In this document: in pieces, positions 37,851-48,146 of the stretch
How the letters are laid out: each line of letters opens with the position of its first letter
How positions within the stretch are numbered: position 1 is the stretch's first letter
Assembly (NCBI RefSeq): GCF_001524445.2
Contig: NZ_CP013417.1
Coordinates: forward strand, 2,542,001 to 2,606,000
Direction: 5' to 3'
Origin: Burkholderia savannae
Lineage (GTDB): Bacteria > Pseudomonadota > Gammaproteobacteria > Burkholderiales > Burkholderiaceae
DNA: 64,000 bases
Translations under genes and position numbers: made by a program
The notes under the pieces: model-generated
Told to the model about the DNA's origin: nothing
Database searches by the model: none
What the model saw: only the letters and a program-made list of their open reading frames with translations

Positions 37851-38699
37851 ATGCTCAACCCTCAATTAACCGAGCGCACGGCCGACTTCTGGACCGATCG
37901 CCAGCATCAGCAGTTCAACGACGCGATCGCTGCTGAAGCGGACCGCAGCGAGCTCGTCGCGCAGATCGCGAAGGAACGCCTGAAGGCCAAGATCGCCGCG
38001 CTGGCTGACGACGACCTGATCGGCGGCATGCACAGCGTGACGCAACAGAAGCACGCTCGCGCCCTGCGCGCCGCGTTCCGCGAGTCGCCGGAGGCGCTTG
38101 GCGATCTGGTGATGTCGATCATCGTGCACGCGATGAGCGAGGACGCGGAGCTCGAGGCCGAGCGCTCGCTCGACGATGACGGGCCGCGCTTCTCGAATGT
38201 CCGCTGTTCCGCATGCGGCCAGGGCTTCGGCCCGGGAATGCGGGATTCAGTAGCTGTATCGATCACATCGGGCGCCGGGCGCGCGTCGACTGACCAACTG
38301 CCACCTCACCGGAGATCCTCAATGGAAGCCACGAAGAATGCAATCGAACTGCCCGAACTCAACGAAGGCGAGCATTACGCCGGAATCCTGATCGGCAAGG
38401 ACGGCGCACCGAGCCACCACGTGATCCTGCTTGCCGGCGATGCCGAAGATCTGACCTGGAAGGCCGCGAAAGAATGGGCCGCATCGATCGGCGGCGACCT
38501 GCCGAGCCGCCGCGAGCAATCGCTCCTGTTCGCCAACCTCGGCGAGCAATTCAAGCGCGACTGGTACTGGTCCGCTGAACAGCATTCATCGAACTCCGGC
38601 TGGGCCTGGTATCAGCTCTTCCACTACGGCGGCCAGGACTGCTACGGCCAGTTCTACGAGTTCCGCGCCCGCGCCGTCCGCAGATTGATCATTCAGTAA
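37851..38699 (+). CDS. DGR target protein 1 (with in-frame N-terminal extension)
   Basis: The frame is open for 282 residues from an ATG with AGGAGT six bases upstream. Residues 1-157 are a helical protein with a late CSACGQGF. From Met158 (ATG at 38322, GGAG 8 bases upstream) a 125-residue domain matches targets 2 and 3: ELPELNEGEHYAGIL, AKEWAASIGGDLPSRREQSL, YWSAEQH, then the variable tail GWAWYQLFHYGGQDCYGQFY-EFRARAVRRL. That domain resembles DUF1566/Lcl-type C-type-lectin folds, the usual ligand-binding scaffold in retroelement targets. Either a 282-residue fusion is made or the 125-residue protein starts internally; the other targets favour the short form. No signal peptide. Confidence 0.8.
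   Translation: MLNPQLTERTADFWTDRQHQQFNDAIAAEADRSELVAQIAKERLKAKIAALADDDLIGGMHSVTQQKHARALRAAFRESPEALGDLVMSIIVHAMSEDAELEAERSLDDDGPRFSNVRCSACGQGFGPGMRDSVAVSITSGAGRASTDQLPPHRRSSMEATKNAIELPELNEGEHYAGILIGKDGAPSHHVILLAGDAEDLTWKAAKEWAASIGGDLPSRREQSLLFANLGEQFKRDWYWSAEQHSSNSGWAWYQLFHYGGQDCYGQFYEFRARAVRRLIIQ
38596..38687 (+). repeat. Variable repeat VR1
   Basis: 92 nt aligned without gaps to the template repeat at 45720-45811. There are 14 differences, and all 14 are at template adenines. The 5' part (CCGGCTGGGCCTGGT) and the 3' part from GAGTTCCGC to CAGATTG are identical. It covers the last codons of target 1. Confidence 0.95.
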
Positions 38700-38730
38700 T
38701 TCGATCCTTTCGAATCGAACGGGGAACCAC

Positions 38731-39051
38731 ATGAACGAGATCAAGCAATTACCGGAGCTGGAAGCGTGCGGCTGGGACGTGCTAACCAAGCGCACCGACG
38801 TCGATCCGGCCGGTTGGCTCGTCGCAGACTGCTCGGCGGCGAAGGAACGCGGCTCGACGCTTGCAACGCTGTTCGCCGCCGCGCCCAATATGTCGCTGGT
38901 CCTCGAAATGATCGCGGCCGACGCTGATGCTGGTGTCGTCATGATCCCGTCCGGCCTGCGCCTGACCATCGACGCCGCCCTCATCAAGGCCGGCCGCAAG
39001 GCTGCGCCGGAGCCGGTGCGGCACGTGACGATCGCGGGGGTGGATCGATGA
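38731..39051 (+). CDS. Hypothetical phage protein (106 aa)
   Basis: Starts MNEIKQLPELEACGWDVLTK. Residues 25-85 alternate helix and strand (DPAGWLVADCSAAKERGSTL, MSLVLEMIAADADAGVVMIP). No recognised motif. It overlaps the next gene by 4 bp and follows target 1 by 31 bp, so it belongs to the rightward early operon. Confidence 0.55.
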   Translation: MNEIKQLPELEACGWDVLTKRTDVDPAGWLVADCSAAKERGSTLATLFAAAPNMSLVLEMIAADADAGVVMIPSGLRLTIDAALIKAGRKAAPEPVRHVTIAGVDR

Positions 39052-39443
39052 GCGCGAAGGCCCTGAAGGCATGCGCGGATTACGCGCGCCTCAACGCTGA
39101 AATCAAGCGTCTGACGAGAGCCATCGCCAGCACGCTTCACTACTGCAAGGGCGTGCGCGGGACGTGCGGCGTCGGCGCCGACGGCATGAAGTACGGCGAC
39201 CACGATGACATTACGCACCTGAAGCATGCGTTCACGCCGGAGACCGAAGAATTGGAATGGGGAGGTCACCGAAAGGTCTGGATGGAAGAAGCAGAAATTC
39301 GCGAATACCTCTTCGAGAACTGCGATTGCTGCCTGAAGGCGTACGGCTTTGTGCTCGAACGGAAGGTGGCGAAGAAGGCACTCGGCGCCGTGAAGCGCTC
39401 CATCGGCGCGATCGGTCGCGCAGAACTGGCCCGGGAGGCATGA
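39048..39443 (+). CDS. Hypothetical phage protein with Cys pairs (131 aa)
   Basis: The sequence has a helical start (ALKACADYARLNAEIKRLTR) and several Cys: HYCKGVRGTCGVGA and YLFENCDCCLKAYGFVLERK. Such Cys-rich short proteins of unknown role are frequent in Burkholderia phage early regions. It overlaps both neighbours by 4 bp. Confidence 0.55.
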   Translation: MSAKALKACADYARLNAEIKRLTRAIASTLHYCKGVRGTCGVGADGMKYGDHDDITHLKHAFTPETEELEWGGHRKVWMEEAEIREYLFENCDCCLKAYGFVLERKVAKKALGAVKRSIGAIGRAELAREA

Positions 39444-39619
39444 TGCGCACCCCTCTCAACAGCCTACAGCCTGTATTTCGCGGTTACAGCCGATCGTTTG
39501 TATCGCGCGCGCGGTACGTGCTCGAAGGATCGGCATGGGCGGCCGCCTACGGCGTCGCGATCGGCTTCCTGTGGTACGGAGCGCTCGTCGCCGGCCCGTA
39601 CCTGCGGAGCCTCGGATGA
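39440..39619 (+). CDS. Small membrane protein A (59 aa)
   Basis: One transmembrane helix (GSAWAAAYGVAIGFLWYGAL) after a basic N-terminus (RGYSRSFVSRARY). Start and stop overlap the adjacent genes by 4 bp (ATGA). First of three consecutive tiny membrane proteins in the early operon. Function unknown. Confidence 0.6.
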   Translation: MMRTPLNSLQPVFRGYSRSFVSRARYVLEGSAWAAAYGVAIGFLWYGALVAGPYLRSLG

Positions 39620-39783
39620 CTCCGATCGACTACCTCTGCGCCGCGCTCGATCGCCTGTACGAGCGCCATCCCGTGCGCGCCATCGCGCTGATGATCGTCA
39701 TCGCATTCGTCTGCATGCTCGCGATCGCGGCGCTCAACCAAGACGGCGCATCCGTCCTGACCGTTCCCGTGAGGACAGCATGA
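39616..39783 (+). CDS. Small membrane protein B (55 aa)
   Basis: MTPIDYLCAALDRLYERHPV followed by one transmembrane helix (AIALMIVIAFVCMLAIAAL). It overlaps both neighbours by 4 bp. Orientation is probably N-in. Function unknown. Confidence 0.6.
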   Translation: MTPIDYLCAALDRLYERHPVRAIALMIVIAFVCMLAIAALNQDGASVLTVPVRTA

Positions 39784-39923
39784 GCCGCTTCACCGATCAC
39801 GCCGAGCGCTTCGAGATTCACCACCCGCGCGCGGCCCGTCTGCTGACGCTCGCAATCTTCGCGGCCGTCGCGTTTCTCGCCGTCGTCGTCGACAGCGCCC
39901 TGAAGGCCGTCGGCATCCAGTAA
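39780..39923 (+). CDS. Small membrane protein C (47 aa)
   Basis: MSRFTDHAERFEIHHPRAAR and then one transmembrane helix (LLTLAIFAAVAFLAVVVDSA). The layout (charged N-terminus with a His/Pro/Arg turn, then helix) copies protein B, so the two may be related. Function unknown. Confidence 0.6.
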   Translation: MSRFTDHAERFEIHHPRAARLLTLAIFAAVAFLAVVVDSALKAVGIQ

Positions 39924-39954
39924 CAACCCGTCATCCATCAAGAGGATACCCGCA

Positions 39955-40239
39955 ATGAACACCATCGAAATGCAGCCGGTCGAGTCGTCACAAATCCACA
40001 GCATCGGATACGACGCGGCGAGCGAAACGCTCGCGATTCGGTTCAAGAACAAAGCGAATGATCCGTCGTCGCTCTACCACTACTCGCAGGTCACGCAGGC
40101 GAACTTCGACGCGTTCAAGAGCGCCGAGTCGATCGGCTCGCACTTCTACAAGTTCATCAAGCCGTTCCCGGAGCGCTTCCCCTACGTGTGCATCGAGAAG
40201 ATGCCGATTCCGGCGCCGATCGTTCCCGCTACCGCGTAA
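39955..40239 (+). CDS. KTSC-domain protein
   Basis: 94 residues. SSQIHSIGYDAASETLAIRF followed by LYHYSQVTQANFDAFKSAES and IGSHFYKFIKP is the KTSC domain, a small DNA/RNA-related fold found in phages and near lysyl-tRNA synthetase-like proteins. The exact role is unknown. It opens a second block of the operon, upstream of the recombination genes. Confidence 0.75.
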   Translation: MNTIEMQPVESSQIHSIGYDAASETLAIRFKNKANDPSSLYHYSQVTQANFDAFKSAESIGSHFYKFIKPFPERFPYVCIEKMPIPAPIVPATA

Positions 40240-40278
40240 CGCTGGCTCGCGCCCTTTCCCCCATTTCCAGAGGATTCC

Positions 40279-41319
40279 ATGTCCACACCTGCCGTTATCG
40301 AGCAGCCGCGCGCGTCCGCCCCCGTTCGCGCCGGCTTCTTCGACCTCGAAGGTTTCGAGTTGCTGCAGCGCGTCGCCAAGGCATTCGCGTCGTCGTCACT
40401 CGTCCCGCAGCAGTACCAGAACAACGTCGCGAACTGCATGATCGCGCTGAACCTCGCGAGTCGCCTGAAGGCCGACGAGCTGATGGTGATGCAGAACCTG
40501 TACGTCGTGCACGGTCGGCCCGGTTGGTCCGCGAAGTTTCTGATCGCGACCTTCAATCACTGCGGCCGCTTCACTGCCGTGAAGTACGAATTCTTCGGCG
40601 AGAAAGGCACCGATTCGTGGGGCTGCCGCGCATCGTCGATCGAGATCACCAGCGGTGAGAAGATCGTCGGGCCGGACGTGACGATCCAGATGGCGAAGGA
40701 CGAAGGCTGGTACGGGAAGAACGGCTCGAAGTGGAAGACCATTCCGCAACTGATGCTGATGTACCGCAGCGCGGGCTGGATGATCAACACGGCCGCGCCG
40801 GAAATCTCGATGGGCCTGCCGACGCAGGAAGAACTGCACGACATCATCGACGTGCGCCCGGACGGCACTGTGTCGTTCGGCGGTGTCGAGGAAGGCAGCG
40901 TACGCGCGCCGGCCGCCGTCGAAGTGCCGCAGCCGAAATCGAAAAGCGAACGAGCCGCCGAACCGCCGGCAATCGCTCAGGCGGATGCAGACGGCGTGAT
41001 CGAAATGGCCGCCACGCAGAAGCAGCCCGAACCGGTCCAGCAAAGCCGCTCGACGCGCCGCACCGCTGCCGACAACACGCAACCGGCTGCGGGCGCCGCG
41101 CGCGAGCCCGGCGCCGACGATGAATCATTCGAACTCGGCGCGCGGGCAGGCGGCGAACCCGTCAGCGACAGCGTGCTGAAGATCCTGAAAACGAAGATGG
41201 AACAGGCCGCGCTCGGCGAGGCAGATCTGCGCAAGCGCTTCGGTTTCGGCTACGAGGGCGTGACCAAGACGAACTATCACGCCGCAGTTGCCTGGATCGA
41301 AAACCCGATGGGCGAATGA
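40279..41319 (+). CDS. RecT-like phage recombination protein
   Basis: 346 residues. The N-terminal 190 residues (VPQQYQNNVANCMIALNLAS, MVMQNLYVVHGRPGWSAKFL, KTIPQLMLMYRSAGWMINTA) match a phage family that takes the place of RecT/Bet annealing proteins. A disordered Ala/Pro/Gln-rich linker (about 205-280) leads to a C-terminal helical end (LKTKMEQAALGEADLRKRFG). It overlaps an exonuclease-like gene by 4 bp, as expected for an annealase/exonuclease pair. Annealase assignment is likely but not certain. Confidence 0.65.
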   Translation: MSTPAVIEQPRASAPVRAGFFDLEGFELLQRVAKAFASSSLVPQQYQNNVANCMIALNLASRLKADELMVMQNLYVVHGRPGWSAKFLIATFNHCGRFTAVKYEFFGEKGTDSWGCRASSIEITSGEKIVGPDVTIQMAKDEGWYGKNGSKWKTIPQLMLMYRSAGWMINTAAPEISMGLPTQEELHDIIDVRPDGTVSFGGVEEGSVRAPAAVEVPQPKSKSERAAEPPAIAQADADGVIEMAATQKQPEPVQQSRSTRRTAADNTQPAAGAAREPGADDESFELGARAGGEPVSDSVLKILKTKMEQAALGEADLRKRFGFGYEGVTKTNYHAAVAWIENPMGE

Positions 41320-41936
41320 TGGCCGCGCTTCTTTTCGATCCTGTTGAGCACGCTTACACCGTCGAGGGCCGGCGTGTGCCGAGCGTGACGCAGGTTCTCG
41401 CCCCGCTCGTCGACTACTCGATGGTGCCGCGCGAGACGCTCGAACGCGCGCGACAGCTCGGGCAGGCCGTGCACCGCATGACCGAGCTGTACGACCTCGA
41501 CGATCTCGACATGGATTCCCTCGCGGACGAACTCCGGCCGTACCTCACGGCCTGGATCAAGTTTCGCGCGGAAACCGGATTCGTGCCCGAGACGATCGAA
41601 CAGCGGATGTTTCATCCCGCGCTGCACTTCGCCGGCACGCCGGACCGGTCGGGCCTGATCAGCGGCCGCCGCGCGGTGATCGACATCAAGAAGATGCTGA
41701 CGCTCGGTCCCTCGATTGGCCTGCAGCTCGCCGCGTACCGAGAGCTGTTCGCGAAGAACGGCACTGTCATCGAAGACCGCTACGGCCTCGGCCTACGCGC
41801 CGACGGCAGCTATCGGCTCGTGCCGTACACCGACAAAGGCGACTGGTCCGTATTCCTGTCGCTTCTCACTCTCCGCAATTGGAAGGAAAAAAATGGACAC
41901 GCAACCGCTGGTGAATCTCCAGGTGCCGCAGCCTGA
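41316..41936 (+). CDS. PD-(D/E)XK exonuclease-like protein
   Basis: 206 residues. FAGTPDRSGLISGRRAVIDIKK (Asp, then Asp-x-Lys) and GLQLAAYRELFAKNG give the catalytic pattern of RecE/Cas4-type PD-(D/E)XK nucleases, with a Gln-x3-Tyr motif. It pairs with the RecT-like gene before it. Its end overlaps the next gene by 44 bp in another frame. The product probably resects DNA ends for phage recombination. Confidence 0.78.
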   Translation: MMAALLFDPVEHAYTVEGRRVPSVTQVLAPLVDYSMVPRETLERARQLGQAVHRMTELYDLDDLDMDSLADELRPYLTAWIKFRAETGFVPETIEQRMFHPALHFAGTPDRSGLISGRRAVIDIKKMLTLGPSIGLQLAAYRELFAKNGTVIEDRYGLGLRADGSYRLVPYTDKGDWSVFLSLLTLRNWKEKNGHATAGESPGAAA

Positions 41937-42699
41937 ACAGACGCTGTTCAAGTCGGCAACCAACGCCCTCGAAATGGCGAAGGCATACACGATCGACAGC
42001 GCCGACATGCGCGACCTGGCCGCGCGCGAGCTCACGAAGATCAAGGGCTTGCAGAAGGACGTCGAGGCGAAGCGCAAAGGCATCACGCAACCGATCGACG
42101 CTGCGAAGAAAGCCGTGATGGATCTGTTTCGCGCGCCGACCGACTACCTCGAGCAGGCCGAAGCGCTGCTGAAGAAGGCGATTCAGGGCTACGACCGCGA
42201 ACAGGAACGTCTGCGCATCGCCGAGCAGGCGCGCCTCGAAGAGGCCGCACGTCAGGAGCGCGCACGCCTGGAACAGGAGGCGGCGGCGCGCGAAGCCGCG
42301 GCGCAGGCAGAGGCGCAGGCCATCCAGCGCCAGGCAGAACAGGCTGCGGCAGCCGGCGATGTCGAATCGGCTGCGCGCCTGAATGCAGAAGCGGAAAGCC
42401 GTGTCGAGCAAGGCGCGGCCGAGGTTGCCACGCTACAGACGACGGCGACGCTCGTCACGGCGCCCGTCGTAGCCGCGCCAGTTCGCACGGCCGGCGTCTC
42501 GACGCGCAAGGTCTGGAAGGCCGAAGTCAGCGACAAGCTCGCGTTGATCCGCTACGTGGCCGCCCATCCGGAATACGTCGACCTGCTCGACGCGAACATG
42601 CCGGCCGTCAACAAAATCGCGCTCGCGCTGAAGAAGAACTGCCCGCTCGATGGCGTGCACGTGTTCGAAGACGATGTGATCGCTGCACGCGCTGCATAA
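41893..42699 (+). CDS. Coiled-coil phage protein (268 aa)
   Basis: Starts MDTQPLVNLQVPQPEQTLFK with GGAAGG upstream. Residues 30-100 are helical (LTKIKGLQKDVEAKRKGITQ); residues 100-180 form a long Ala/Gln/Glu/Arg coiled coil; the C-terminal 70 residues are globular (VSTRKVWKAEVSDKLALIRY ... VNKIALALKKNCPLDGVHVF). This layout occurs in phage proteins next to RecT-type genes. Role in recombination is only inferred. Confidence 0.6.
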   Translation: MDTQPLVNLQVPQPEQTLFKSATNALEMAKAYTIDSADMRDLAARELTKIKGLQKDVEAKRKGITQPIDAAKKAVMDLFRAPTDYLEQAEALLKKAIQGYDREQERLRIAEQARLEEAARQERARLEQEAAAREAAAQAEAQAIQRQAEQAAAAGDVESAARLNAEAESRVEQGAAEVATLQTTATLVTAPVVAAPVRTAGVSTRKVWKAEVSDKLALIRYVAAHPEYVDLLDANMPAVNKIALALKKNCPLDGVHVFEDDVIAARAA

Positions 42700-42732
42700 A
42701 CCCTTCTCTCCATTGATCAGGACGATCCGACC

Positions 42733-43407
42733 ATGACCGATAAAAACGTTCTCCAGATGACCGCCGACACCATCGGCAAAGACCTGCTGTCTGCGCTCGT
42801 GACCGAGCTGAAGCTGCTGCCCGACGTCTGGGTGAAGTTGTCCGAGAAGAAGCAGAACGACGTCATCGACCGCCTGCGCTCGCGCGTCGAGCACAACGTG
42901 AAGATGGCGACGCACCTGATCGCGAGCAACGGCCGCACGGTCGTGGCCGGTGATCTCGAACAGATCACGATCAAGGATGGCGTGAAGGCGGTCGTGAAAT
43001 TCAGTGGCGCCGCGCCGAACCTGCACGAGCTGTACGACGCGAGCGGGAAAGCGGTGCTGGTCGTCGTGGCGAATCCGGACGAGCACACCGGCGGCATGAA
43101 TGACGTGCGCGGCGAATCGGATCAGCGCGGGTTCGATCTCGGTCGCGAATACACCGATGACGATGGCGACGGCATGGATGGTCCGGGCGACATCGTCGAT
43201 GTCGACGCGCGCGAGGTGCCGCAGCTCGGCGACGGGCCGCTGCAGTCCGAGATCGACGAGCAGTTCGCGGCCGGGCGCCGTGCTGCCGAGGAAGGCAAGC
43301 CCGAAAGCGAATGCCCGGTCATGGGCGGCGAGCTGTGCATCGCATGGGTCAAGGGCTGGAAGTCGTGGCACGAGGAACATCCGGCCAACGAGGCGGAGGA
43401 AGCATGA
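42733..43407 (+). CDS. Hypothetical phage protein (224 aa)
   Basis: The first 130 residues are a conserved-looking domain (LSALVTELKLLPDVWVKLSE ... HNVKMATHLIASNGRTVVAG) with a short beta part. The rest is an acidic linker and a C-terminal QFAAGRRAAEEGKPESECPV followed by WVKGWKSWHEEHP, the ribosome-modulation-factor-like ending common in phage proteins. It overlaps the next gene by 4 bp. Confidence 0.6.
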   Translation: MTDKNVLQMTADTIGKDLLSALVTELKLLPDVWVKLSEKKQNDVIDRLRSRVEHNVKMATHLIASNGRTVVAGDLEQITIKDGVKAVVKFSGAAPNLHELYDASGKAVLVVVANPDEHTGGMNDVRGESDQRGFDLGREYTDDDGDGMDGPGDIVDVDAREVPQLGDGPLQSEIDEQFAAGRRAAEEGKPESECPVMGGELCIAWVKGWKSWHEEHPANEAEEA

Positions 43408-44135
43408 GATCCGAAATCGAAACCTATCTCGGCACCGTCGTCGATTCGACCGCGAAGAAGATTTCGATCAACGTCGGACTGCCGCAGCTCGACGTCGCCA
43501 AGGAACTGAATCGGATGCATACCGAGGGCGTCGTCGAGCGCGAGAAACGCGCCGGAGGCGGCAACGAGTATGCGTACTGGCTCGTGCGCGGCAAGCAGGC
43601 GGCACCGGCCGCTGCTGAGAACGTGCCGATGGCGGTCGGGATCGTCGAACAGACTGTCGATCAGGATGCGAAGGTGATCAAGCCGACGCAGATCGAGGCT
43701 CAGTCGACCATGGCGAGACTCGCGGCCGAAATGATTTCGTCGGATGTGCTCGATTTGCTGAAGATTCTCGATCTGCCGTCGTCGCTGACAATCGCGATCG
43801 AGGTGGCGCGCGAGCGCGCCCAAGCCGCCCAGGAAGGACGCGACAAGCAGAAAGGGCTCATCTCCGAGATCGAGTCGTTGAAGGACGTGAATGCCCGCCT
43901 GAAAGCCAACAATGCCGACCTCGAAAAACGCATCGACGCGCTCAGTGGCGACGTGCGGCCGCTCGGGTCGGTGTTCGTCACCATGGGCCGCGAAGCGAAG
44001 CCGAAGCGCCACACGACAATCGAGAAGGCACAGCGCCGTGCATCGGCGCTCATCCGCTCCGAGCGAGAATCGGAAGTGCTTGTGCTCGAACCCATCGGTC
44101 GCATGGTGCGCGGCAGCGAGTGGCGCGCGCGATAA
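43404..44135 (+). CDS. Winged-helix and coiled-coil protein
   Basis: 243 residues. The first 60 residues form a probable winged helix (ISINVGLPQLDVAKELNRMH followed by VVEREKRAGGGNEYAYWLV). A helical middle and a coiled coil (LISEIESLKDVNARLKANNA) follow, then a basic C-terminus. This may be a DNA-binding regulator of the operon. It precedes the retroelement cassette. Confidence 0.6.
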   Translation: MRSEIETYLGTVVDSTAKKISINVGLPQLDVAKELNRMHTEGVVEREKRAGGGNEYAYWLVRGKQAAPAAAENVPMAVGIVEQTVDQDAKVIKPTQIEAQSTMARLAAEMISSDVLDLLKILDLPSSLTIAIEVARERAQAAQEGRDKQKGLISEIESLKDVNARLKANNADLEKRIDALSGDVRPLGSVFVTMGREAKPKRHTTIEKAQRRASALIRSERESEVLVLEPIGRMVRGSEWRAR

Positions 44136-44324
44136 GCATCCACGGGCCGACCGCGCCGGCCCTCTTTTCTCTTCCCTAGGTCTCAATGGTGGGCGCTCGG
44201 TGTGACGGGTGGGCGCCGTCACTGCCCCGACTCGACTCCCGGCGCTTTCATGCTAACCCGCTGCCTCATGCGAGCCGAGCGTCCATCGTTGCGACCAGTT
44301 GTTCTACATCATCCAGGAGAAACC

Positions 44325-44681
44325 ATGCAACAGATCCAACTTCCCCCGCTCGCCGAAGGCGAGGTCTATCTCGGCGGTTTCGTCAACGCCACCGGCGACG
44401 TCGAGCACGTCATCCTCCTGCCCGGCGACATCCGCGCGACGTGGCACAAGGCCAAGGAATGGGCCGAGAGCCTCGGCGGCGACCTGCTGAACCGCTACGA
44501 GCAAGCATTCGCATTCTCCAAGCATCCCGACCTGTTCGAGAAGGCCGCGTACTGGTCGAACACCGAAGACGCTGAAGATCCCGGCTGGGCCTGGTGTCAG
44601 CTCTTCACCAACGGCACCCAGCACTACAGCCGCCAGTACAACGAGTTCCGCGCCCGCGCCGTCCGCAGATTGTCGATTTAA
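44325..44681 (+). CDS. DGR target protein 2
   Basis: 118 residues, ATG at 44325 with AGGAG eight bases upstream. QLPPLAEGEVYLGGFVNATG, AKEWAESLGGDLLNRYEQAF and YWSNTEDAEDPGWAW align with targets 1 and 3. It ends in the variable tail WCQLFTNGTQHYSRQYNEFR and then ARAVRRL. The fold is probably a DUF1566/C-lectin-like ligand binder. No signal peptide or transmembrane segment. It lies in the operon just upstream of target 3, Avd and the reverse transcriptase. Confidence 0.88.
   Translation: MQQIQLPPLAEGEVYLGGFVNATGDVEHVILLPGDIRATWHKAKEWAESLGGDLLNRYEQAFAFSKHPDLFEKAAYWSNTEDAEDPGWAWCQLFTNGTQHYSRQYNEFRARAVRRLSI
44581..44672 (+). repeat. Variable repeat VR2
   Basis: 92 nt, gap-free to the template at 45720-45811, with 10 differences, all at template adenines. 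Two of the nine template AAC codons are unchanged (fourth and last). It covers the C-terminus of target 2. Confidence 0.95.
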
Positions 44682-44711
44682 CCCTTCATCCATTCACAAC
44701 GGAGCATCGCA

Positions 44712-45176
44712 ATGACGATCACGCTTCAAGCAATCGAGAACGAGCATGCGCGCATCAGCGCCATGATCGAGACATTCAAGACGCAGTCGCAGGCGACGGA
44801 ATATCGCGTCGACGCGGCCATCATCCCGCTCGCGGCCGGCGAACGTTTCGCAGGTGCGATCCTGAACGACGATGGCACGCTGAGCCATTACCTGATCCTA
44901 TTGCCCGGTCAGGCCGAGGACGTGAACTGGAAGGGTGCGATCGCATGGGCGGCCGAGCATGGCGGTGAACTGCCGACGCGACGCGAGCAGTCGCTGCTCT
45001 TCGCGAACCTGAAGCACGAGTTCGACGAGCGCTATTACTGGTCCTGCGAGCAGCACGAAGAAAACTCCGGCTGGGCCTGGTCTCAGGGCTTCCACTACGG
45101 CAGCCAGACCTGCCACTACCAGCTCTACGAGTTCCGCGCCCGCGCCGTCCGCAGATTTATTCCTTCGGTAATTTGA
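44712..45176 (+). CDS. DGR target protein 3
   Basis: 154 residues. An extra N-terminal helical segment of about 35 residues (LQAIENEHARISAMIETFKT) precedes the common domain (PLAAGERFAGAILNDDGTLS, GGELPTRREQSLLFANLKHE, YYWSCEQH), ending with the variable tail GWAWSQGFHYGSQTCHYQLY and EFRARAVRRF. Closest to target 1. The coding sequence ends 15 bp before avd. Confidence 0.88.
   Translation: MTITLQAIENEHARISAMIETFKTQSQATEYRVDAAIIPLAAGERFAGAILNDDGTLSHYLILLPGQAEDVNWKGAIAWAAEHGGELPTRREQSLLFANLKHEFDERYYWSCEQHEENSGWAWSQGFHYGSQTCHYQLYEFRARAVRRFIPSVI
45067..45158 (+). repeat. Variable repeat VR3
   Basis: 92 nt against the template at 45720-45811 with 13 differences at template adenines; only the very last base (G to T) departs from that rule and lies at the repeat edge. 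It covers the C-terminus of target 3. Confidence 0.95.
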
Positions 45177-45190
45177 TCATTTAGACCATC

Positions 45191-45568
45191 ATGGCCCTGC
45201 ACACTCAACTCCCGATTTATCGAGCGGCCTACGCGCTGCTCGACGTCGTCACTGACCTGGTCAAGAACATGCCCCGCGACTTCAAGCGCAGCATCGGCGA
45301 GAAGATCAGCGGGGAATGCATCGAGATCATGGTGTTGGTGTTTCGCGCCAATGTGGCGACTGACAAGTCGCCTCACCTTACCGAGCTGCTCGAACGCCTG
45401 CAGGTGATCGAGTTGCTTCTCCGGCTCGGCATGGATAAACGTCTGATCTTGCGTCCGGCGTATGCGCGTGCAATCGAACAGACGACCAGTATCGGGAAGC
45501 AGGCCACCGGGTGGAAGAAGTCCGCAGACCGTCGCCCGCTCCATGGAGGTCAAGGCTTCCATGGCTGA
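45191..45568 (+). CDS. avd: Accessory variability determinant (Avd)
   Basis: 125 residues, all-helical and basic, of the four-helix S23/Avd type: LPIYRAAYALLDVVTDLVKN, MPRDFKRSIGEKISGECIEI, ALVFRANVAT-type third helix and LLERLQVIELLLRLGMDKRL. In retroelements Avd forms a pentamer that binds the reverse transcriptase and template RNA and is needed for priming. Length matches the family. It overlaps the start of the reverse transcriptase frame by 8 bp. Confidence 0.88.
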   Translation: MALHTQLPIYRAAYALLDVVTDLVKNMPRDFKRSIGEKISGECIEIMVLVFRANVATDKSPHLTELLERLQVIELLLRLGMDKRLILRPAYARAIEQTTSIGKQATGWKKSADRRPLHGGQGFHG

Positions 45569-46898
45569 GCGATATTTCAATCTGGTCGTGCCGCTGGCTC
45601 ACGAGGCCACCGCCATGCGCAATGAGGAAACCGACCGCCGGCGTGCGGGAAGGTCCAGCGCAGTTTCTCCGCTGATCGGCGAGGACCTTCAGCAGAGCGA
45701 CGTAGATAGCACGATACTTCCGGCTGGGCCTGGTATCAGAACTTCAACAACGGCAACCAGAACTACAACAACCAGAACAACGAGTTCCGCGCCCGCGCCG
45801 TCCGCAGATTGGGAAAATCGATTCACGTTCGCCGAGCTGGTCGAGGCCTATCTCGACTGCCGGCGCACGAAACGAAACAGCAATACCGCGCTCGCGTTCG
45901 AGATCGGCCTCGAACGCAACCTGCGATTACTGCACGACGAGCTGGCCGACGGCAGCTATCGGCCCGGCCGCTCGATCTGCTTCGTCATCACGCGACCGAA
46001 GCCGCGCGAAGTTTGGGCGGCCGAGTTCCGCGATCGCATCGTGCACCACCTGCTCTACAACCGGATCGGCCCTCGCTTCGAGCGGTCGTTCATCGTCGAC
46101 TCGTGCGCCTGTATCGAGGGGCGCGGCACCCTGTACGCCGCGCAGCGCCTCGAATCGAAGGTGCGTTCGATCACGCAGAACTGGTCGCGACCCGCGCATT
46201 ATCTGAAGTGCGATCTCGCGAATTTCTTCGTCAGCATCGACAAGCGCATCCTGCGCGAGTTGCTGGTCGCGAAGATCCACGAGCCATTCTGGCGCAAGCT
46301 GACCGAGCTCGTGCTGATGCACGATCCACGGGCCGACTACGTCTACCGCGGCGACCCGGCGATGATGGAGCGCGTGCCGCCGCACAAGCGCCTGATGGAG
46401 CAATCGCCGGATCTCGGGCTGCCGATCGGAAACCTGTCGAGCCAGTTCTTCGCGAACGTGTACCTCGACGTGCTCGATCAGCGCGCGAAGCACATGCTCG
46501 GCGCGCGGCACTACATCCGGTACGTCGACGATTTCGTGTTCCTGCACGAGTCGCCGGCGCGCCTGAACGCGATCCTCGCCGATGTCACCGCCTTTCTGCC
46601 GGCACGGCTCGGCGCGCGTATCAACCCGCGCAAGACCATTTTGCAGCCGATCGACCGCGGCATCGACTTCGTCGGTCAGGTCATCAAGCCCTGGCGCCGT
46701 GAAACGCGGAAACGCACGCGCAACGAAGCGCTACGGCGCGTTGCCGAGACGCCGGCCGCCGACCTAATGCCCGTCGCGAATTCGTATTTCGGGCTGCTCC
46801 GCCAGGCAACCGCCAGCCATCAGGACCGCGCGAGCCTCGCAAACCGCCTGCGTTCGCTCGGTAAAGCCATAGATCGCGACCTCACCAAGACGTTCTGA
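45561..46898 (+). CDS. DGR reverse transcriptase
   Basis: 445 residues from the ATG at 45561 (GGAGGT 10 bases upstream; other in-frame ATGs at 45543 and 45615). Catalytic features: KCDLANFF with the first Asp at about 218, LGLPIGNLSSQFFANVYLD (the Gly...Ser-Gln motif typical of retroelement enzymes) and RYVDDFVFL at about 320-328 with the Asp pair. It copies the template RNA with errors at adenines and drives the cDNA into VRs. Oddity: the conserved domain starts at about residue 90, and the preceding frame runs through the template repeat; there is no ATG, GTG or TTG in frame between TR and the conserved domain. Confidence 0.92.
   Translation: MAERYFNLVVPLAHEATAMRNEETDRRRAGRSSAVSPLIGEDLQQSDVDSTILPAGPGIRTSTTATRTTTTRTTSSAPAPSADWENRFTFAELVEAYLDCRRTKRNSNTALAFEIGLERNLRLLHDELADGSYRPGRSICFVITRPKPREVWAAEFRDRIVHHLLYNRIGPRFERSFIVDSCACIEGRGTLYAAQRLESKVRSITQNWSRPAHYLKCDLANFFVSIDKRILRELLVAKIHEPFWRKLTELVLMHDPRADYVYRGDPAMMERVPPHKRLMEQSPDLGLPIGNLSSQFFANVYLDVLDQRAKHMLGARHYIRYVDDFVFLHESPARLNAILADVTAFLPARLGARINPRKTILQPIDRGIDFVGQVIKPWRRETRKRTRNEALRRVAETPAADLMPVANSYFGLLRQATASHQDRASLANRLRSLGKAIDRDLTKTF
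45720..45811 (+). repeat. Template repeat TR
   Basis: 92 nt homologous to VR1-VR3. Read in the VR frame it would encode nine Asn (AAC) codons in its centre, the codon giving most diversity on adenine mutagenesis. Read in the reverse transcriptase frame (+1 relative) it encodes a Thr/Ala/Pro-rich linker. The 3' 30 nt (GAGTTCCGCGCCCGCGCCGT...) are shared by all copies and should include the site where homing starts. Confidence 0.95.
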
Positions 46899-46904
46899 AT
46901 CGGA

Positions 46905-48146
46905 ATGCAAATGAGCCACCAGACCGACATCTTCGCTGCCGGCGCGCAGCGCCTGCAGATGACCGAATCCATCGAGCTAACGATCCAATCGATGCAGGTA
47001 TACGGCCCCGATCATGACCACTGGGGTATTGCGTGGTCCGGTGGGAAGGACAGCACCGCGACACTCACGATCATCTGCTGGTTGATCGACACGGGCAAGA
47101 TCGCCGCGCCGAAGACGCTCACGGTGTTCTATGCCGACACGCGGCAGGAGCTTCCACCACTCGCGATTTCCGCGCTGCACATCATGGACGAGCTGCACGA
47201 GCGCGGCATCCAGGTGGACGTCGTGCGAGCGCCGCTCGACAAGCGATTCATGGTCTACATCCTCGGCCGCGGCGTGCCGCCGCCGAACAACAACACGCTT
47301 CGCTGGTGTACGCGGCAGATCAAGATCGACCCGATGGAAGAGGCGCTTCGCAAACGACTCGACGGCATCGACGGCTCGATCCTCATGATCACCGGCGTCC
47401 GTCAGGGCGAAAGCGCAATCCGCGATCGTCGGATCGAGATGAGCTGCGGCAAGGATGGCGCCGAGTGTGGTCAGGGCTGGTATCAGCAGGTGCTACCGAA
47501 CGCACGCGGCCTGCGCGGCCGGATCGCGACGCTCGCCCCGCTGCTGCATTGGCGCGTCTGCCACGTGTGGGAATGGCTGCGCCACTGGGCGCCGGCGGCT
47601 GAGTTCGGCGATTGGTCGACGGCCGCAATCGCGGACGCGTACGGCGGCGACGAGGCCGAGGAGATTAACGCGCGCACGGGCTGTATCGGATGCGCACTTG
47701 CCCAGGAGGAAAAGGCTCTCGAAACGGTGCTTGCGACACCGCAGTGGGCCTATCTCACACCCCTGCGCGGCATCAAGCCGCTATGGCGCGAACTGCGCGA
47801 GCCGCAGCATCGCCTGCGCAAACCGGGGCTCGAGAAGCTGAAAAGCGGCGGCGTCGCGAAGAATCCGCAGCGCCTCGGACCGCTGACGTTCGAAGCGCGA
47901 TTGATGGCGCTCGATCGGATCCTTTCGATCCAGGCCGAATGCAACCACATCGCGCGCGCCACTGGGCGTCCGTCGATCGACCTGATCGATGCCGAAGAAG
48001 AGGCCCGGATCCGCGAGCTGATCGCCGCGGGGACGTGGCCGCAGGGATGGGAAGGCGACGAGCCGACAGGAGACGTCGTGCTCGACGTCGTATATGCAAA
48101 TGGCGCGATCCAGCCGCGCCTCTTCAGCGAGGAGGAATCAGCATGA
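46905..48146 (+). CDS. PP-loop ATPase, PAPS reductase/DndC-like
   Basis: 413 residues. The PP-loop WGIAWSGGKDSTATLTI at about 42-58 binds ATP; VFYADTRQELPP and LRWCTRQIKIDP are the second and third family motifs; a later TGCIGCALAQ adds two Cys, as in DndC-type proteins that carry Fe-S clusters. Related enzymes reduce PAPS or put sulfur into DNA. No DndA, D or E partner is nearby, so the substrate is open. It follows the reverse transcriptase by 6 bp and may be cotranscribed. Confidence 0.8.
   Translation: MQMSHQTDIFAAGAQRLQMTESIELTIQSMQVYGPDHDHWGIAWSGGKDSTATLTIICWLIDTGKIAAPKTLTVFYADTRQELPPLAISALHIMDELHERGIQVDVVRAPLDKRFMVYILGRGVPPPNNNTLRWCTRQIKIDPMEEALRKRLDGIDGSILMITGVRQGESAIRDRRIEMSCGKDGAECGQGWYQQVLPNARGLRGRIATLAPLLHWRVCHVWEWLRHWAPAAEFGDWSTAAIADAYGGDEAEEINARTGCIGCALAQEEKALETVLATPQWAYLTPLRGIKPLWRELREPQHRLRKPGLEKLKSGGVAKNPQRLGPLTFEARLMALDRILSIQAECNHIARATGRPSIDLIDAEEEARIRELIAAGTWPQGWEGDEPTGDVVLDVVYANGAIQPRLFSEEESA

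What the first reader, a model, noticed from the sequence alone, without database searches (positions are those of the whole stretch)
38596..46898. Complete diversity-generating retroelement with three targets
One 92-nt template repeat (45720-45811) aligns without gaps to three variable repeats (38596-38687, 44581-44672, 45067-45158). I counted 14, 10 and 13 differences within the first 91 positions; all 37 are at template adenines, none at C, G or T. The two CAG codons never change and the last 30 nt are constant apart from the final base of VR3. An Avd gene and a reverse transcriptase with YVDD and Gly...Ser-Gln motifs adjoin the template. This is the defining signature of an active or recently active retroelement in a Burkholderia prophage.
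Basis: seen in the sequence. Interest (0 to 1): 0.94.

Follow-up and report, generated by a model that had tools for sequence, protein, structure and literature searches.

The report
Back-to-front template RNA of a retroelement
This Burkholderia prophage carries a diversity-generating retroelement with one template and three target genes, whose folded RNA lies in front of the template instead of behind it and is predicted, from paired changes in its relatives, to hold the template's far end for copying in a way that resembles retrons.

Summary
The finding is confirmed. TR 45720-45811 differs from VR1, VR2 and VR3 at 14, 10 and 13 of the first 91 positions, all template adenines. Avd and a DGR-type RT follow. 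A close relative, phage Magia's DGR, is already in print. The new part is the template RNA. Rfam's RT-15 RNA (45530-45721, 178.9 bits) lies 5' of the TR, and the RT core starts right after the TR. In BPP-1 relatives and RT-14 DGRs the structured RNA lies 3' of the TR. In 82 dereplicated relatives a helix absent from the Rfam model joins 45575-45584 to the TR 3' end and flank (45805-45814). It covaries far above shuffles; one pair shows 14 Watson-Crick double changes on the RT tree. The order strand-RNA-template-strand is that of a retron ncRNA. Bacteroides phage F2 (RT 35% identical) and its relatives show a matching helix. RTs with this spacing form one side of a fully supported branch. The lineage is active: two records of one 47,902-bp relative phage differ at 31 sites, 27 in VRs, 26 of those at template adenines. 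Priming at the clamp is inferred; activity of this copy is untested.

The parts
38322..38699 (+). Target gene 1 (125 aa), variable C terminus
   Evidence: Lcl_C E 0.002, below its cut-off; 62% identical to target 3 over residues 13-123
38596..38687 (+). VR1
   Evidence: 14 differences from TR, all at A
44325..44681 (+). Target gene 2 (118 aa)
   Evidence: Lcl_C E 4.6e-06, below its cut-off
44581..44672 (+). VR2
   Evidence: 10 differences, all at A
44712..45176 (+). Target gene 3 (154 aa)
   Evidence: model pLDDT 93.8, best fold match Legionella Lcl C-terminal domain
45067..45158 (+). VR3
   Evidence: 13 differences at A, plus the last base
45191..45568 (+). avd
   Evidence: PF22296 over its cut-off; phrog_3206; an Avd match in 138 of 138 relatives tested
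45530..45721 (+). RT-15 RNA (RF03018), 5' of the template
   Evidence: 178.9 bits, gathering score 82, E 2.9e-45; covariation in 82 relatives
45575..45584 (+). Clamp helix, 5' strand (unpaired in the Rfam model)
45585..45585 (+). Invariant unpaired G between clamp and first stem of the RNA; candidate priming residue (inferred by analogy with retrons)
   Evidence: invariant in the 82-sequence alignment; role inferred
45720..45811 (+). Template repeat (TR)
45805..45814 (+). Clamp helix, 3' strand (last bases of TR and flank)
45561..46898 (+). RT gene; predicted start ATG 45561 overlapping the avd stop (or 45543); frame open through RNA and TR; RT core from 45813
   Evidence: phrog_1423

Best explanation
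This is a diversity-generating retroelement whose structured RNA (RT-15) sits 5' of the template repeat and is predicted, by a helix that covaries across relatives, to pair with the template's 3' end, an arrangement that likely positions the Avd-RT complex to start error-prone cDNA there in the manner of a retron. The adenine-mutated cDNA would then replace the 3' ends of three small genes with a predicted C-type-lectin-like fold. SHOWN: A-only TR/VR differences; Avd; DGR-type RT; RNA order; covariation of the clamp; no extra silent-site constraint 3' of the TR; VR turnover between two records of a relative phage. INFERRED: that the RT binds this RNA, that priming occurs at or beside the clamp (candidate: invariant G45585), and that this copy is active. 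PREDICTED: the RT is translated from an ATG overlapping the avd stop, right through RNA and TR.
For: TR/VR pattern. RT-15 hit. Of 17 RT-selected relatives scanned, 16 have RT-15; the 17th, L157, is cut within the element. A search from the RNA side found RT-15 in 3 of 398 genomes, own included; the other two both have TR and RT right after it. Contrast: Phage_DGR RNA in 18 of 20 BPP-1-group loci scanned (one is BPP-1 itself), starting 5-44 nt 3' of the TR in the 14 of 18 where the TR was found; RT-14 at the 3' end of the TR in 4 of 17 VP58.5-group loci and in BalMu-1. TR end to RT anchor: median 201 nt (154 of 163 loci) against 373 (55 of 65) and 343 (68 of 82). Clamp: covariation score 0.274 against 0.103 +/- 0.010 in shuffles (0 of 500 as high) and at most 0.119 when slid; 287 of 436 Watson-Crick at pairs 6-9 against at most 211 in 5000 permutations; pair 7 changes 17 times on the RT tree, 14 of them Watson-Crick to Watson-Crick. 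Silent-site diversity ratio 0.21-0.42 up to the TR end, 0.85-0.98 over the next 75 codons. Activity.
Against: No biochemistry. The single-sequence fold contains the clamp but is no more stable than shuffles (z 0.14). Clamp pair 6 is not a standard pair in 30 of 82; the outer pairs 9 and 10 fail in 21 of 74 and 34 of 73; pair 8 and pairs 10-12 show little or no covariation by permutation. On one of five measures, further pair types (22), two slid versions score higher (23, 25). Of two binary tests of independent pairs at pair 7, one is significant (p 0.008) and the other has only 3 pairs, all 3 agreeing. No hairpin stands out downstream of the VRs, unlike BPP-1. RT-15 could instead regulate RT translation.
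Confidence: 0.8

Rival explanations
1. Ordinary DGR in which RT-15 is only a translational control element of the avd-RT operon, and the priming RNA overlaps the RT coding sequence 3' of the TR as a BPP-1-like spacer.
For: The covarying hairpin 45541-45564 covers both a GGAGG (45545-45549) and the predicted RT start 45561, so it could control translation.
Against: No excess constraint on silent sites after the TR. Rfam finds no second RNA in the window at gathering scores. A covarying helix ties RT-15 to the template's 3' end, which a leader would not need.
Confidence: 0.14
2. The DGR is an intact but silent remnant in this genome.
For: No read data or second isolate of this prophage were examined; the downstream VR hairpin known from BPP-1 was not detected.
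Against: Avd, RT and target frames are open, VR1-VR3 carry no non-A difference in positions 1-91, and the lineage shows VR turnover in a relative.
Confidence: 0.2
3. The repeats are paralogous genes that diverged by ordinary mutation and selection.
For: The three targets are paralogues (42-62% identical).
Against: 37 of 37 differences in positions 1-91 are at template A, and 26 of 27 VR differences between two records of a relative phage are at template A.
Confidence: 0.01

Closest known systems
DGR of Burkholderia phage Magia (MT701587; PMC7883833, main text read, end of reference list not)
   Same: Same lineage, RT 83% identical, Avd, same order and spacing of TR and RT, target genes in the early region; the paper names a potential DGR with targets in genes 47 and 57.
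   Different: Our scan finds a third VR, in gene 46 (annotated 'hypothetical'). The paper's text does not mention the RNA or its order.
BPP-1 DGR of Bordetella phage (AY029185)
   Same: Avd, RT, one TR, A-specific differences, C-terminal VR.
   Different: Structured RNA (Phage_DGR, RF03022) lies 3' of the TR, and the gene before the TR (bbp7) ends right at its start; one annotated VR, in a tail protein.
Rfam RT-15 RNA (RF03018)
   Same: Window RNA scores 178.9 bits, full length. GenBank's record of Pseudomonas phage Cruim01 already lists an RT-15 misc_RNA before an RT gene.
   Different: The tool describes the family only as 'RT-15 RNA' (its Rfam page was not read); its model ends where the TR begins and leaves the clamp strand unpaired.
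Retron ncRNA (PMC8867640, passages; a1/a2 details recalled)
   Same: Structured RNA 5' of the template, a helix joining the 5' part to the template's 3' end, a G next to it.
   Different: RT is not a retron RT by the one model tested (NCBIfam retron_St85 43.2 bits, cut-off 235); has Avd and TR/VR repeats; branch priming not shown.
DGRs of phages ACA1/ACA2 (PMC10612066, passages)
   Same: TR translated as an N-terminal extension of the RT is already reported there.
   Different: In ACA1 the TR follows avd after 8 nt and lies 123 nt before the RT core, so by spacing it is the 3'-RNA type.

Membership tests
Diversity-generating retroelement | Template and variable repeats that differ at template adenines | tested here: met
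   37 of 37 in positions 1-91
Diversity-generating retroelement | RT of the DGR clade with (I/V/L)GxxxSQ motif (motif from PMC3521204, passages) | tested here: met
   IGNLSSQ; phrog_1423; 8ub7 E 1e-37. In a tree it sits among 33 other DGR RTs, but these were picked as RT relatives, so the tree does not test the clade
Diversity-generating retroelement | Avd accessory protein | tested here: met
   bAvd over its cut-off; NCBIfam DivGenRetAVD 48 bits is under its cut-off of 80
Diversity-generating retroelement | VR at the C terminus of a C-type-lectin-fold target | tested here: met
   (predicted model of target 3; only the Lcl C-terminal domain passes E 0.001, C-type lectins follow from E 0.0026)
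Diversity-generating retroelement | IMH followed by a hairpin downstream of the VR (BPP-1 feature, PMC3240598 passages) | tested here: inconclusive
   constant GC-rich 3' end, but no significant hairpin at the three VRs (47, 168 and 147 of 200 shuffles as stable)
BPP-1-type template RNA | Structured RNA between TR and RT | tested here: not met
   RNA is 5' of the TR
RT-15 RNA (RF03018) | Covariance-model score over the gathering score | tested here: met
   178.9 against 82 bits
Retron | Retron-class RT | tested here: not met
   retron_St85 43.2 bits, cut-off 235; other retron types not tested
Retron | RNA part 5' of template with a helix joining 5' part and template 3' end | tested here: met
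   (topology only, from covariation)
Retron | 2'-OH priming at a G and branched msDNA | not testable with these tools
   needs biochemistry

The most novel reading that the evidence does not exclude
There is a second architecture of DGR, permuted relative to BPP-1: a 5' structured RNA (RT-15 and relatives, also in Bacteroides phages) clamps the template's 3' end and primes cDNA from the invariant G beside the clamp, as a retron does, while a hairpin over the RT start lets one transcript serve either as mRNA or as template. DGRs and retrons would then share one RNA plan, and orphan RT-n RNAs would be DGR cores.
Probability: 0.35. Interest if true: 0.85.

Novelty: new variant of a known kind. 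Interest (0 to 1): 0.62.

Why it matters
The papers I read describe DGR priming for BPP-1 only, with the structured spacer 3' of the template (PMC12875486, passages). Here a whole branch of RTs (100/100 support) has TR and RT spaced as in the RT-15 lineage, where the RNA is on the other side of the template and a covarying clamp marks where copying should start. That would give the orphan RT-15 RNA a job, link the RNA plans of DGRs and retrons, and it yields sharp, cheap tests: cDNA start mapping and clamp disruption.

Tried and rejected
RecT idea: a RecT-like annealing protein and an exonuclease lie between VR1 and VR2, but RecT-like or ERF annealing proteins were found in only 3 (PF03837), 4 (PF04404) and 12 (phrog_561) of 45 relative records, 19 of 45 in all, so a tie to cDNA integration is not supported.

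Adenines before G: 13 of 839 changed, against 66% before A, 48% before C and 44% before T. 802 of the 839 are second codon positions, nearly all Gln or Lys codons, so selection is not excluded; at other codon positions 4 of 37 changed. My first table was wrong because a few frames were misassigned.

Other errors: translated targets one base off (redone); one search had the clamp off by one base (redone); the outgroup row of the tree was a wrong-strand translation, so that tree is replaced. The over-merged gene clusters were not used. One search printed too much and was rerun. A viral scan with the L176 RT found nothing.

Target profile against solved sequences: 8q4e at E 0.0023; the remaining six hits (E 0.3 and above) were treated as chance.

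Print check: the ten searches listed no paper whose title or abstract start joins RT-15 to DGRs or describes this clamp; the listed papers were not all opened. Wu 2018 and Weinberg 2017 are not held, so an earlier statement there cannot be excluded.
Full report
OBSERVATION. The TR at 45720-45811 aligns without gaps to three VRs, and all 37 differences in positions 1-91 are at template adenines. Flanking identity is 3-7 of 30 bases on either side. A DNA search of the own genome (7.43 Mb, 3 contigs) finds the TR and these three VRs and no other match. Avd and RT are confirmed by profile. The closest named relatives among phage records are Burkholderia phage Magia and a 47,902-bp phage deposited twice, as Shewanella phage vB_Sb_QDWS and Hujiaoplasma phage zrk29-1. 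The Magia paper (part 1 of 2 of its full text, which holds the whole main text) reports a potential DGR with targets in genes 47 and 57. Our scan also finds a VR in its gene 46.

RELATIVES. With the window and three phage-record loci, 164 loci carried the RT. The TR was found in 154 of them, and 138 of these are distinct. In 314 TR-VR pairs 3884 of 8968 template adenines differ, against 18 of 10119 C, 15 of 7069 G and 24 of 3927 T. The finder penalises non-A differences, so the non-A counts are biased low; the window's own count is not. An Avd match was found in all 138.

THE RNA. Codon alignment of 136 loci, read in the RT frame, shows a silent-site diversity ratio of 0.21-0.42 (15-codon means) up to the end of the TR and 0.85-0.98 over the next 75 codons; the lowest later mean within the RT is 0.69. 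Upstream of the avd stop the low values may reflect avd coding, and within the TR its coding for targets; between avd stop and TR they do not. Rfam identifies the element as RT-15 (RF03018) at 45530-45721. In BPP-1 the Rfam family Phage_DGR lies 3' of the TR, and in BalMu-1 RT-14 does. Among 20 BPP-1-group loci scanned (one is BPP-1 itself), 18 have Phage_DGR; the TR was found in 14 of these 18, and the RNA starts 5-44 nt after it in all 14. Among 17 VP58.5-group loci, 4 have RT-14, starting -1 to +5 nt from the TR end; the three F2-group loci in the same scan match no Rfam family. In the RT-15 lineage 16 of 17 RT-selected loci scanned have it; the exception, L157, is cut within the element. 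Asked from the RNA side, 3 of 398 genomes drawn from the phylum have RT-15, own included, and the other two loci both carry TR and RT directly after it. TR-to-RT spacing separates the RT-15 lineage (193-237 nt, 154 of 163 loci) from the BPP-1 group (362-408, 55 of 65) and the VP58.5 group (315-465, 68 of 82) without overlap.

THE CLAMP. The Rfam model leaves AAUCUGG (model positions 50-56) unpaired and ends at the TR. The stretch that holds it, window 45575-45584, is complementary to 45805-45814, the last bases of the TR and its flank. Over 109 distinct strand combinations pair 7 is Watson-Crick in 96%, against a permuted mean of 34% and maximum of 49%; pairs 6 and 9 also exceed all 5000 permutations; pair 8 and pairs 10-12 do not. 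On 82 dereplicated relatives the clamp's covariation score is 0.274 against 0.103 +/- 0.010, with 79 double-change cells against 22.6; no shuffle of 500 reaches either, and slid versions score at most 0.119. On the measure 'further pair types' two slid versions (23, 25) exceed the clamp (22). Pair 6 is not a standard pair in 30 of 82. RT-15 and clamp together have 52 of 65 pairs with changes on both sides. On a quick RT tree of 80 of these loci (two short rows dropped) pair 7 changes 17 times: 14 Watson-Crick to Watson-Crick, 2 through G-U, 1 to a mismatch. Of 9 supported independent pairs in the strong/weak split about 8.4 go the same way (p 0.008); the purine/pyrimidine split gives 3 pairs, all the same way, too few to test. 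The window's own minimum-energy fold contains the clamp, but its total energy is not unusual (z 0.14).

A WIDER CLASS. Bacteroides phage F2, at 35% RT identity, has a short TR-RT spacing (222 nt to the anchor) and a long avd-TR spacing (128 nt). In its four-member group overlapping alignment columns hold GTTATCTG/CAGATAAC in F2 and a contig with a 99% identical RT, and TTTCCGTAA/TTACGGAAG in two contigs with RTs 68% identical to F2's. By my own estimate a single such match would be near chance; two different ones at one place are not. In a tree of 34 DGR RTs picked by me from the loci, the twelve short-spacing rows are one side of a branch with 100/100 support, with or without another RT of the own genome as outgroup.

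ACTIVITY. The two records of the 47,902-bp phage differ at 31 positions: 14 in VR2, 13 in VR1, 4 elsewhere; 26 of the 27 VR differences are at template A; TR and VR3 are identical. So this lineage retrohomes, unless the records mislead. Whether this genome's copy does is untested.

EXPRESSION. The RT frame is open from the avd stop through RNA and TR in 105 of 138 loci; 33 have a stop, Magia among them. In the window no ATG, GTG or TTG in the RT frame lies in the TR or in the 60 codons after it, so the RT is predicted to start at ATG 45561 (or 45543), overlapping the avd stop, and to be translated through the TR. Translation of the TR as RT N terminus is in print for other phages (PMC10612066, passages). 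The covarying hairpin 45541-45564 (9 of 10 pairs with changes on both sides) covers a GGAGG and the start; a switch between mRNA and template is only an inference.

TARGETS. The three targets are short proteins: target 1 follows the repressor region, all lie away from the tail module, and they match nothing else in the window but each other and the TR. Target 3 is modelled at pLDDT 93.8; its best solved match is the Legionella Lcl C-terminal domain (E 5.3e-05, TM 0.58/0.67), then C-type lectin domains from E 0.0026. Their function is unknown; their place in the early region argues against simple tail fibres.

VERDICT. An ordinary DGR by its parts, in a lineage already noticed, but with a permuted template RNA that I did not find described in the papers I could search (listed under Tried and rejected). 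What works like a retron here is the topology of the RNA; it is not a retron.

Noticed in passing
L334/L335 (OP650936, OK094664): One 47,902-bp phage is deposited twice with hosts from different phyla (a Tenericutes bacterium and Shewanella baltica) although in this region its nearest relatives are Burkholderia phages and prophages; host labels look doubtful.
   Followed up: partly
TR adenines before G, e.g. window 45738, 45759, 45774: Adenines followed by G are almost never changed (13 of 839 in 138 loci), mostly in CAG and AAG codons; enzyme context or selection cannot be told apart.
   Followed up: partly
window 40279-41936: RecT-like annealing protein and exonuclease between VR1 and VR2; annealing proteins found in 19 of 45 relative records.
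   Followed up: yes
window 46905-48146: PAPS-reductase/DndC-like protein directly after the RT (phrog_12882, E 4.6e-237; DndC 101.6 bits, cut-off 290.4).
   Followed up: no
G000 C1:3518230-3518541 and C2:2173022-2173333: Another RT (514-residue open frame, 36% identical over part of the query) on two contigs of the own genome.
   Followed up: no
L009:7882-8346 (Magia gene 46): A third VR, in a gene that the published annotation calls hypothetical.
   Followed up: yes
L179 (Bacteroides phage BS-TP1), L176: Further DGRs with short TR-RT and long avd-TR spacing (the avd end of L176 was assumed, its record has no annotation); candidate 5' clamps not tested by covariation.
   Followed up: partly
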